The position numbers were made by a program, and so were the translations under genes. The notes below the pieces were generated by a model. It ran no database searches. It saw only the letters and a program-made list of their open reading frames with translations, and had not been told where the DNA came from. 64,000 bases of DNA from Clostridiales bacterium. Its GTDB lineage: Bacteria > Bacillota > Clostridia > Oscillospirales > CAG-272. The stretch lies in the NCBI GenBank assembly GCA_022800625.1, contig JAAWQR010000006.1, forward strand, positions 1 to 64,000, read 5' to 3'. Shown here one piece after another: positions 1 to 5,188 of this stretch (the first letter of the stretch is position 1; the number at the start of each line of letters is the position of its first letter).

Positions 1-1
1 T

Positions 2-127
2 GGAATGACAAACGAGATAATAGATAGCTGTAAAATAGTAGGGAAAGAATTTCTTAAAATTCTAAATGAACTTAGCAAGCTCGGATATTATGACAATGGA
101 GATTTTGCAAATGGTATGATTGGTTAG
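2..127 (+). CDS. C-terminal end of an unidentified CDS truncated by the window edge (…GMTNEIIDSCKIVGKEFLKILNELSKLGYYDNGDFANGMIG*)
   Basis: Open frame from base 2 to TAG at 125-127; too short to identify. Confidence 0.35.
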   Translation, partial: GMTNEIIDSCKIVGKEFLKILNELSKLGYYDNGDFANGMIG

Positions 128-285
128 ACGCAGTCTAATACACGTCTGTTACGTTCATAAAACCGTTTATTTGTGTTTTGCGAACAGGTGCCCCGTAAAA
201 GTGAATTGTCCTCTATAAGCCTGTATAGCCAAATAGTAAGCAAACAAAAAAGACGCTGAGGTTTTAGCCTTAGCGTCTTTCCTTT

Positions 286-687
286 TCATTTCATAATTTC
301 ATGAATAACTGCTGTAATAATCTCTGGATCATATTCTTCGTACAAAGTATTCCCATATACATTGTTGCGGTATCTCTCTGGCGTTATTGTAAATGGTTGT
401 ATACCGATGAAATTTTGTTTCCATTTCACTTTCACTCCATTTTTTAAGTCAGATACATTTGTCTCAGAAACGATACCTACAGCTTTTATATGAAGTGTCG
501 TGTTTCTTAGTGCAAACGATTTAATGTAAATAATGTCTCCCGGTTTTATAGAACTTAACATTTTGTATAACGACGGTGCATTACGTTTGTCCCACCCGAT
601 ACAAGCACACTCATTATCTATAAAATCCTGTGTCTTATCCTCAGGTGTTTCTCCAGTGTAATATGCACCTATTCCCCATACTGCCAT
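286..687 (-). CDS. EVE/PUA-like small domain protein (putative)
   Basis: 133 aa ORF; 'WGIGAYY..….IGWD…SIKPGDIIYIKSF….IKAVGIV' resembles EVE-like/restriction-associated nucleic-acid binding folds. Confidence 0.55.
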   Translation of the reverse strand: MAVWGIGAYYTGETPEDKTQDFIDNECACIGWDKRNAPSLYKMLSSIKPGDIIYIKSFALRNTTLHIKAVGIVSETNVSDLKNGVKVKWKQNFIGIQPFTITPERYRNNVYGNTLYEEYDPEIITAVIHEIMK

Positions 688-803
688 ATGTAAATGCCTC
701 CATTATGTTTTTTATTATTATATCATGTTTGTGATAAAATAGCAAAGTTTAATTTACTCAATGAAACTGTCAATCTTTATTTTCTAAAGTTCTTGTCAAT
801 GGC

Positions 804-3006: not shown

Positions 3007-3035
3007 TTGCTTTTTTAGCGTATTCGGTTTATAAT
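3007..3035 (+). promoter_or_regulatory. Putative sigma-A promoter for the serine recombinase
   Basis: TTGCTT - 17 bp - TATAAT, located between the XRE terminator and the recombinase start. Confidence 0.6.
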
Positions 3036-3102
3036 AAGGGTGGGAGATAAGCCGTAACGTGCGAAATCGCAATGTTACATAACATACAGCGGAGGAATCC
3101 AT

Positions 3103-4827
3103 ATGAAATCAGAAATCAAAGATAACCGAAAATTTGCGATCTACTCCCGCAAATCAAAGTTTACAGGCAAAGGTGAAAGTATCGAAAACCAAATTGAACT
3201 CTGCCGACAGTACATTCGTCTGCACAATCCCGATGTTCGGGAAAGCGACATTTTGATTTACGAGGACGAGGGGTTTTCAGGTGGAAACACCAACCGTCCC
3301 AAATTCAAAGAAATGATGTCGAAAATCAAAGCCAATCAGATTCAGGCGGTCGTCTGTTACCGACTTGACAGAATCAGCCGTAATGTCGCGGATTTTTCAC
3401 TGATGTATCAGGTATTCGACGATATGAACGTTTCGTTTTTGTCCGTCAGCGAGCGGTACGATACTTCCACTCCGTCAGGCAGAGCAATGCTCAGTATGTG
3501 CACCGTCTTTGCTCAGATGGAGCGGGAAACGATTGCCGAACGTATCAAGGATAATATGCACGAGCTTGCCAAATCGGGCAGATGGCTGGGCGGTACGACT
3601 CCGACAGGATACAAAAGCACGCAGATTGTAGGAAGCGTAACGGTTGACGGGAAAGAGCGCAAGGCGTATAAACTGGATATTGTAAAAGCTGAAGCCGAGC
3701 TTGTGAAAGGGATTTTTGAAAAATTTCTTGAAACCAATTCACTGACCAAAACCGAAACCTATTTGCTTCAAAAACATATCAAAACCAAAAACGGCAAAGA
3801 TTTTACCAGATTTTCCATCCGTTCAATTTTAGCCAATCCCGTTTATATGATTGCCGACGCACAGGCATGGAATTATTTTGAATCAATGGGCGTTGAAATT
3901 TATGCGGACAAATCGGATTTTGACGGTAAGCATGGCGTAATCGCTTACAGCAAAACCATTCAAAAACCTGGCAAGGCAAATCAGATTAAGGACATGAACG
4001 AATGGATTATTGCTGTCGGAAAGCATGAAGGCTTGATTTCGGGCAGGGATTGGGTAAACGCGCAAGCCTCGTTAAAACAAAATCGCTCCAAATCCTATCA
4101 CAAGCCGAGAAGCAACGTAGCCTTATTGTCTGGACTGCTTTTCTGCGGAAAATGCGGAGATTTCATGCGTCCGAAACTGTCGCAGAGATTGAACAAAGAC
4201 GGAGAACAAATCTATTCCTACCTTTGTCAGACCAAAGAAAAAAGCCGCCGACAGAATTGCGACGGCAAGAATCCAAACGGAAACGAGCTTGACAGAATGG
4301 TTTGCGAACAAATCAAGCTACTGTCCCAAAATCATTCCGCATTCATCAAAGGCTTAGCCACCGTAAAACGGGAATTTGAAGCAAGCAGAGAAGATTTTAA
4401 CGAACGTCTGCTTCATCTCCAAAAAGAACAGCAGGATAACGAAAAGCAAATCAACGCATTAGTAACCGCGCTATCCAAGTCGGACGGTACGGCAGCATTC
4501 GATTACATCACAAATCAAATCAACGAACTGCACAGCAAAAACGACGGTATCAAAAAGCAGATTGCGGATATAGAAAGCGTGTCGAATCAATACAGCTATT
4601 CGGACAGCGAATTTGAAATCTTAAAAGACCTGCTTGTTTCCTTCGGTAAATCGTTTGATACCATGTCGGTAGAACAGAAAAGATCTGCGCTTCGCACCTT
4701 TATCCGCAGAATCGTATGGGACGGTGAAAACGCTCATGTATTGCTTTTCGGAGACAGCGAGGAGAACATTGATATAAGCAGTTTTACAGAGCAAAATGTA
4801 GAGCCGTTGGGAGCGGATAGCGAATGA
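3103..4827 (+). CDS. Large serine recombinase (resolvase + recombinase + zinc-ribbon + coiled-coil), probable sigK intervening-element recombinase (SpoIVCA-like)
   Basis: 'AIYSRKSKFTGKGESIENQIELCRQYI', 'YRLDRISRNVADF', 'FAQMERETIAERIKDNM', zinc ribbon 'LLFCGKCGDFMRP…CDGK'; stop codon TGA 4825-4827 lies within the sigK-like codons. Confidence 0.95.
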   Translation: MKSEIKDNRKFAIYSRKSKFTGKGESIENQIELCRQYIRLHNPDVRESDILIYEDEGFSGGNTNRPKFKEMMSKIKANQIQAVVCYRLDRISRNVADFSLMYQVFDDMNVSFLSVSERYDTSTPSGRAMLSMCTVFAQMERETIAERIKDNMHELAKSGRWLGGTTPTGYKSTQIVGSVTVDGKERKAYKLDIVKAEAELVKGIFEKFLETNSLTKTETYLLQKHIKTKNGKDFTRFSIRSILANPVYMIADAQAWNYFESMGVEIYADKSDFDGKHGVIAYSKTIQKPGKANQIKDMNEWIIAVGKHEGLISGRDWVNAQASLKQNRSKSYHKPRSNVALLSGLLFCGKCGDFMRPKLSQRLNKDGEQIYSYLCQTKEKSRRQNCDGKNPNGNELDRMVCEQIKLLSQNHSAFIKGLATVKREFEASREDFNERLLHLQKEQQDNEKQINALVTALSKSDGTAAFDYITNQINELHSKNDGIKKQIADIESVSNQYSYSDSEFEILKDLLVSFGKSFDTMSVEQKRSALRTFIRRIVWDGENAHVLLFGDSEENIDISSFTEQNVEPLGADSE

Positions 4828-4840
4828 AATCCTGATGTTT
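4820..4840 (+). other. Predicted recombination (att) half-site at the sigK junction
   Basis: AATGAAATCCTGATGTTTTTC reads N-E-I-L-M-F-F in the sigma-K frame; AATGA (4823-4827) equals the crossover core remembered for the B. subtilis skin element and overlaps the recombinase stop codon. Confidence 0.65.
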
Positions 4841-5188
4841 TTCAGATCTCAAAAAAAGCTGTCCTCAGAGGTATCTATCAACGATACGATCGATACCGAT
4901 AAGGACGGAAATCCGCTGACATATTTTGACATCATAAGAACAGAGGATACGATAGCCGATGATATCGATATGAAGATCAAAATCGGTAAGGCTGCGGAAT
5001 ATATAAAAAATGTACTGAGTGAACGTGAGCGTGAAATCATAATTCTTCGGTACGGACTCGGAACCGACGCGCCGATAACACAGCGTGAGGTAGCGGAAAA
5101 ACTCGGAATATCGCGCTCTTATGTAAGCCGTATAGAAAAGAATGCGCTTGATAAGCTGAAGACATGCTTTGACGGCGGAATATACTGA
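4823..5188 (+). pseudogene. sigK: 3' half of sigK (RNA polymerase sporulation sigma factor sigma-K, regions 3-4), 5'-interrupted by the adjacent element; expected to be restored by excision rather than truly dead
   Basis: 'NEILMFFRSQKKLSSEVSINDTIDTDKDGNPLTYFDII…VLSEREREIIILRYGL…TQREVAEKLGISRSYVSRIEKNALDKL' matches sigma-K C-terminus; regions 1.2/2 are absent upstream and replaced by the recombinase. Confidence 0.9.

What the first reader, a model, noticed from the sequence alone, without database searches (positions are those of the whole stretch)
1..5188. Probable sigK intervening (skin-type) element: serine recombinase abutting a 5'-truncated sigma-K
Seen: 4823-5188 encodes only regions 3-4 of a sporulation sigma factor with sigma-K signatures (DKDGNPLTYFDII, TQREVAEKLGISRSYVSRIEK). 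The preceding sequence is a large serine recombinase in the same orientation rather than sigma regions 1-2. Established: in B. subtilis and C. difficile, sigK is split by a skin element excised in the mother cell by a serine recombinase (SpoIVCA). Inference: bases 1-~4825 are the right part of such an element, which carries an EVE-like protein, a lipoprotein and an XRE regulator as cargo. The sigK 5' half should lie upstream of the window. The cargo and gene order do not match the skin elements I know.
Basis: partly seen in the sequence, partly recalled or inferred. Interest (0 to 1): 0.88.

Follow-up and report, generated by a model that had tools for sequence, protein, structure and literature searches.

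The report
sigK-splitting element with self-splitting recombinase gene
A mobile DNA element sits in the middle of a spore-formation gene (sigK) of a gut Clostridia bacterium, and sequence evidence says that cutting it out repairs sigK and, in the same stroke, rebuilds a longer recombinase gene on the excised circle, an arrangement found across many gut spore-formers that I could not find described.

Summary
The missing sigK 5' half is at C54:14351-14681 of the same genome, same orientation. The only full-length SigK-like gene is sigE beside spoIIGA. In-silico joining at an AA core gives CIQNEILM, as in uninterrupted congeners. New: the recombinase gene runs into the crossover point and takes its stop codon (TGA) from sigK; after excision its frame continues about 200 codons into the element's left end, giving a recombinase-(Cro/C1-type HTH)2 fusion (780 aa here). 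The left-end module follows split sigK in 69 of 83 loci from public genomes and viral contigs (Oscillospirales, Lachnospirales, Negativicutes, Holdemania); 67 of 69 keep the frame. In 21 of 23 further pairs of ends the predicted fusion extends at least 147 aa. Contiguous fusion genes exist in metagenomes, mostly hybrids that suggest tandem elements. The recombinases form a sigK-dedicated clade. So integration splits both genes and excision restores both. Excision, mother-cell timing and the role of the HTH extension are inferred; most likely it changes recombinase behaviour with integration state. A 2021 review calls self-splitting integrases exclusively archaeal; I judge this a new variant of the skin kind.

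The parts
4825..5188 (+). 3' part of split sigK (regions 3-4), continuing from the AA core at 4823-4824; in frame with the 5' part on C54:14351-14682
4823..4824 (+). putative crossover dinucleotide AA; centre of the attP palindrome and the only dinucleotide shared at this offset by both ends of this element
   Evidence: inferred from comparison, not mapped
4802..4822 (+). right element arm of attR (AGCCGTTGGGAGCGGATAGCG); inverted-repeat partner of the left arm (CATAACGGCT) on C54
3103..4827 (+). large serine recombinase, 574 aa in the integrated state; its stop codon TGA (4825-4827) comes from sigK; in the excised circle the frame continues 206 codons into L026 2684-3301 (C54:14683-15300)
2565..2942 (+). 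XRE/Cro-C1 regulator (125 aa) upstream of the recombinase; a similar gene sits in the same place in the Massilioclostridium coli element
804..2435 (-). predicted lipoprotein-like cargo protein, no family match
286..687 (-). small EVE/PUA-like cargo protein (assignment by eye); a similar protein lies in the M. coli element
1..127 (+). 3' end of an element gene cut by the contig start
   Evidence: read directly from sequence
5509..7154 (+). right chromosomal flank: 235-aa protein and ispE; ispE also lies beside intact sigK in congeners

Best explanation
Bases 1-4824 are the right end of a mobile element inserted in sigK (at least 7.1 kb; its middle falls in an assembly gap). During sporulation the element's serine recombinase excises it by attL x attR recombination at an AA core, restoring sigK (inferred from homology to B. 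subtilis and C. difficile). The attachment site lies inside the recombinase's own reading frame. In the chromosome the recombinase ends at a TGA supplied by sigK (short form, 574 aa, all known catalytic and DNA-binding domains kept). In the circle the frame runs on through a flexible linker into a beta-hairpin plus two Cro/C1-type HTH domains (long form, 780 aa). So the recombinase gene and sigK are split and restored reciprocally by one event. My preferred mechanism: the integration state sets which recombinase is made. The short form serves excision. The HTH tail of the long form changes directionality or autoregulates, either helping a newly arrived circle to integrate or blocking re-integration in the mother cell. 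Shown: the split, the frame relation, its conservation, the contiguous fusion genes and the clade. Inferred: excision itself, mother-cell timing, and what the tail does.
For: Both sigK halves found, same orientation, no other sigK. Intact sigK of congeners has the same neighbours and reads CIQNEILM. In-silico excision gives C-I/L-QNEILM in 10 of 10 family genomes with both halves. In 23 further pairs of ends, mostly named isolates, sigK rejoins in frame in all 23; the recombinase frame is open to the core in 22; the extension is at least 147 aa in 21. The left-end module follows sigK5 in 69 of 83 loci, in frame with the core in 67, none of those with a stop in the linker. pN/pS is 0.11-0.14 for codons 30-200 of the extension; ten loci have an in-frame stop just before the core and no ATG until codon 125. 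Contiguous recombinase-HTH proteins of 772-812 aa occur in metagenomes and in L159. Recombinases beside sigK form one clade; relatives at 30-43% identity lie elsewhere. The tail is modelled as disordered linker, beta-hairpin and two HTH domains (mean pLDDT 82). In G226 two contigs overlap by exactly 141 bases starting at the sigK core, as expected if excised and integrated forms coexist.
Against: No reads or junction PCR: excision is not observed in this genome. The contigs C54 and C51 are joined by inference. Most contiguous fusion genes are hybrids (for example recombinase 96-98% to one lineage, HTH 97-100% to another), which points to tandem elements rather than excised circles. Three family elements lack the HTH module and extend only 13-28 codons. 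The HTH fragment could start at in-frame GTG/TTG codons in the integrated state. Two of the 69 loci are out of frame; the Soleaferrea recombinase frame is broken and the Sporomusa extension is 57 aa.
Confidence: 0.78

Rival explanations
1. An ordinary skin-type element in which the left-end HTH protein is a separate regulator (or a directionality factor in trans) read from the sigK promoter. Its frame match to the recombinase is an ancestral relic or a by-product of att geometry.
For: The module lies directly behind the sigK 5' part, so the sigK promoter would transcribe it. In the window's genome a GTG with SD-like GGAG lies just before the core. GTG/TTG codons occur within the first 5-32 codons elsewhere. 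The hairpin region and HTH are strongly conserved by themselves. In C. difficile the directionality factor is sigma-E/SpoIIID-controlled (PMC5025042).
Against: Thirty of 63 measured loci have an in-frame stop one codon upstream of the core. Ten of the loci with such a stop have no ATG for 125 codons. The linker frame is kept in 67 of 69 loci with no stops. Contiguous fusion genes exist.
Confidence: 0.17
2. A dead remnant: sigK is permanently broken by a degenerate element in a lineage that no longer sporulates.
For: The genome is a fragmented assembly with no sporulation data. The F. prausnitzii copy has altered residues next to the junction (CIENELRM). Off-site and broken copies exist (L149, L157).
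Against: Recombinase, both sigK parts and both ends are intact here. Reconstitution is exact in dozens of genomes, including isolates. Other sporulation sigma factors, including sigE with spoIIGA, are present.
Confidence: 0.05
3. A binning or assembly artefact: the sigK halves come from different organisms.
For: The two halves are on separate contigs of one fragmented assembly.
Against: The exact joint, matching neighbours in congeners, and single-contig elements in L065, L115, L119, L122, L123 and in named genomes including the complete genome CCNA10.
Confidence: 0.02

Closest known systems
Skin elements in sigK of B. subtilis (spoIVCA) and C. difficile (CD1231, RDF CD1234; PMC5025042)
   Same: Interrupts sigK, carries a large serine recombinase, short core between inverted repeats, expected excision restores sigK. 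In C. difficile too the recombinase lies immediately upstream of the sigK 3' part.
   Different: Recombinase gene crosses the core and takes its stop from sigK; excision extends it by an HTH module; different cargo; core AA within the NEIL codons. Whether CD1231 also crosses its core was not tested.
Suicidal (SSV-type) tyrosine integrases of Archaea (PMC8371274)
   Same: Attachment site within the integrase gene, so integration splits it. The review calls such enzymes exclusively archaeal.
   Different: Serine recombinase, bacterial; the piece left after integration keeps all recombinase domains, so it is probably still active.
Integration-dependent immunity of mycobacteriophage BPs (PMC4557955)
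   Same: attP inside a gene, so integrated and free forms encode proteins with different C-termini.
   Different: There the split gene is the repressor; here it is the recombinase, and the lost part is a DNA-binding module.
Engineered integrase-RDF fusions (PMC5737554)
   Same: One polypeptide of serine integrase plus extra domain behind a linker; such fusions favour attL x attR and weaken attP x attB.
   Different: Man-made and constant; here the fusion would appear only after excision, and the tail is not shown to be an RDF.

Membership tests
sigK-intervening (skin-type) element | sigK split in two parts, same orientation, rejoining in frame when the element is removed | tested here: met
sigK-intervening (skin-type) element | no intact sigK elsewhere in the genome | tested here: met
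   (the other full-length ORF is sigE beside spoIIGA); genome 95.7% complete
sigK-intervening (skin-type) element | encodes a large serine recombinase | tested here: met
sigK-intervening (skin-type) element | inverted-repeat att arms with a short common core | tested here: met
sigK-intervening (skin-type) element | excised in the mother cell during sporulation | not testable with these tools
   needs sporulating culture; G226 contig overlap at the core is only suggestive
Suicidal (self-splitting) integrase | attachment site inside the integrase reading frame | tested here: met
Suicidal (self-splitting) integrase | tyrosine recombinase of Archaea | tested here: not met
   serine recombinase of a bacterium
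Suicidal (self-splitting) integrase | integration inactivates the enzyme | tested here: inconclusive
   all known LSR domains remain in the 574-aa form; activity not measured
Integrase-RDF fusion | tail acts as recombination directionality factor | not testable with these tools
   tail resembles Cro/C1 HTH proteins; no activity data

The most novel reading that the evidence does not exclude
A reciprocal two-gene switch, widespread in gut spore-formers: one recombination event toggles the host sigK gene and the element's own recombinase between split and whole. The enzyme's C-terminus therefore reports whether the element is integrated, and the long form controls direction (integration after transfer, or a lock against re-integration in the mother cell). 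It would be the first self-splitting serine recombinase and the first such case in bacteria.
Probability: 0.6. Interest if true: 0.85.

Novelty: new variant of a known kind. Interest (0 to 1): 0.74.

Why it matters
How skin-type elements keep excision one-way and confined to the dying mother cell is a standing question; in C. difficile it takes a separate factor. Here the answer may be built into the attachment site: the enzyme changes form when it acts. The class is common in human and animal gut anaerobes, so it bears on when and whether they sporulate. It also offers natural recombinase-HTH fusions for genome engineering and a bacterial parallel to archaeal self-splitting integrases.

Tried and rejected
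A core of ATA was first assumed from the window alone; comparison of ten genomes moved it to AA, the palindrome centre. Viral contigs: no relative of the window recombinase; three HTH relatives; an attP pattern gave 66 hits in viral contigs, about what I estimate by chance, with at most two distant recombinases and no HTH module, and one hit in 399 order genomes, so no assembled circle was caught. Phage records: no HTH module; best recombinase 39% (Terrisporobacter phage TPELB_ph1). Fused proteins as proof of circles was rejected because most are hybrids. A second sigK in G026 was 82% identical to the split copy, so it was not taken as an excised form of the same gene. C. perfringens phage phiS63 was not found under the accession tried. 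A literature search found no description of this class, but only open-licence papers are held.

Full report
OBSERVATION. The window is C51:1-64000 of a 2.14-Mb, 55-contig, 95.7% complete assembly. Bases 4823-5188 encode only the C-terminal half of SigK, directly behind a 574-aa large serine recombinase, ORF 3103-4827.

THE OTHER HALF. A profile search of the own genome finds the sigK 5' half at C54:14351-14698, same orientation, 2.2 kb before that contig ends. The one full-length SigK-like ORF lies next to spoIIGA and is sigE. In most congeners sigK is whole and flanked by the same DUF378-like gene and, where the locus reaches that far, by ispE. One congener (G007) has a 5' half with a related left end. 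So C54 and C51 are the two sides of one interrupted sigK. The element is at least 7.1 kb; its middle is missing from the assembly.

ATTACHMENT SITES. In ten family genomes with both halves, removing the element at an AA core gives C-I/L-Q-N-E-I-L-M in all ten. Q is native: nine uninterrupted congener genes have it. The element ends form a long imperfect palindrome, AGCCGTTAGGAGAGGATAGCG-AA-TGCTATCCTATCATAACGGCT in the commonest version, centred on AA. In the window element AA is the only dinucleotide shared at that offset (read).

THE RECOMBINASE GENE CROSSES THE SITE. In the chromosome the recombinase reads ...GCG GAT AGC GAA TGA: the core lies in its last sense codon and the stop is made by sigK bases. 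Joined to the left end it reads ...GAT AGC GAA ACC AAT CCG CTC ATA... and stays open for 206 codons. That stretch is the left-end ORF with two Cro/C1 HTH domains. For a relative of this tail AlphaFold models a disordered first 20 residues, a three-strand hairpin and two HTH domains, mean pLDDT 82; the nearest solved folds are Cro/C1 repressors.

HOW GENERAL. The recombinase search of 298 family genomes gives eight other hits with 44% identity or more, each with a sigK 3' half directly behind it; two further hits at 40-43% (L056, L057) do not have it. A profile of the left-end module (A1) found 9 of 398 family and 16 of 399 order genomes, nearly all directly behind a sigK 5' half. A wider profile (A2) gave 80 loci in named genomes and three in viral contigs. 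Of these 83, 69 have the sigK 5' part adjacent; 67 are in frame with the core and have no stop in the linker. Hosts include Oscillibacter, Flavonifractor, Pseudoflavonifractor, Anaeromassilibacillus, Merdimmobilis, Massilioclostridium, Sellimonas, Mediterraneibacter, Clostridium fessum, Tyzzerella, Sporomusa ovata, Holdemania and Faecalibacterium prausnitzii. In 23 further pairs of ends, the sigK parts rejoin in frame in all, the recombinase frame is open to the core in 22, and the extension is 147-216 aa in 21 of these 22 and 57 aa in Sporomusa; Soleaferrea has a broken recombinase frame. Elements measured on one contig run from 6.1 kb (L065) to about 140 kb in the complete genome CCNA10.

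IS THE FUSION REAL? Three lines say so. First, selection: in 87 pairs of loci pN/pS is 0.14 for codons 30-75 and 0.12 for 75-200 of the extension. In pairs that both have an in-frame stop within a codon upstream of the core the values are 0.11 and 0.11, with weaker constraint (0.66) in the linker codons 9-30. Ten loci with such a stop lack any ATG until codon 125, though GTG/TTG codons exist earlier. Second, the frame is kept through length changes in the linker (22 or 25 residues among loci; longer in the window). Third, contiguous genes of 772-812 aa exist in metagenomes with resolvase, recombinase, zinc-ribbon and HTH domains, and one in L159. These are mostly hybrids: for example P0007 has a recombinase 96% like Holdemania's and an HTH 97% like F. 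prausnitzii's. I read them as tandem elements, where one element's right end meets the next one's left end. They show that the joint is in frame between unrelated copies, not that circles were sequenced.

CLADE AND MOBILITY. The sigK-adjacent recombinases group together, apart from relatives not next to sigK (midpoint-rooted FastTree; L048 was labelled 'other' by my distance rule but is sigK-adjacent). The window recombinase is 68% identical to those of Massilioclostridium coli (outside its family) and L180, but 43-55% to those of its own family, which suggests horizontal transfer. Copies behind a tRNA-Asn (L149) and in inverted orientation (L127, L189, L201) also point to mobility.

MECHANISM. 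Shown: both genes are split at one point and both frames are restored by one recombination in silico. Inferred: the short form excises the element in the mother cell; the long form appears only after excision or before integration. Two uses are plausible. The tail may help an incoming circle to integrate or repress its own promoter until it does; or it may act like a built-in directionality factor that blocks re-integration. Engineered integrase-RDF fusions behave in the second way (PMC5737554). I give these roughly equal weight. Three elements without the module show that it is not essential to every member.

COEXISTENCE. In G226 contig C41 begins exactly at GAATGAAATCC and overlaps by 141 bases a contig with whole sigK. 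That is what an assembler with 141-base words would give if attB and attR forms were both present; the second path was not itself seen, and strain mixture would look the same.

KNOWN KINDS. Skin elements are established in B. subtilis and C. difficile (PMC5025042). CD1231 is also directly upstream of the sigK 3' part, so adjacency alone is not new. [quoted passage not shown] BPs-type phages do this with a repressor (PMC4557955). I found no report of this class or of a serine recombinase with such a site, within an open-licence library.

CARGO. The window element carries an XRE regulator, a lipoprotein-like protein and a small EVE-like protein; the C54 side has a 373-aa protein with a weak match to the candidate defence family PDC-S02. 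The related M. coli element has similar XRE and EVE-like genes and adds a G2P-type replication protein and a HEPN protein.

Noticed in passing
L147, L163, L164, L165, L167, L171, L174, L209, L213: sigK is interrupted a second time just before codons KKYY; where a recombinase lies near that joint it is only 22-28% identical to the window's. L163 and L209 hold the earlier sigK piece too, so the gene is in at least three parts.
   Followed up: partly
L127 4600-5700, L189, L201: Left end of the element lies next to the sigK 3' part on the opposite strand: inverted insertions, in keeping with the near-palindromic attP.
   Followed up: partly
L149 1-200 and 3849-5534 (Hominifimenecus microfluidus): Element of this class inserted behind a tRNA-Asn (read by eye) instead of in sigK.
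   Followed up: partly
P0011 and P0014 (metagenome proteins): HTH module fused to an FtsX-like and a RhuM-like protein; off-target insertions or chimeric assemblies.
   Followed up: no
L148, L220 (Faecalibacterium prausnitzii): A species usually regarded as non-sporulating (own knowledge) keeps a split sigK with this element; the 3' part reads CIENELRM at the joint and looks eroded.
   Followed up: no
L142 and L218 (Clostridiales bacterium CCNA10, complete genome): The two sigK parts lie about 140 kb apart, far more than in other carriers; content of the stretch not read.
   Followed up: no
L228, L229 (Sporomusa ovata): A further SigK C-terminal fragment lies about 5 kb beyond the sigK 3' part.
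   Followed up: no
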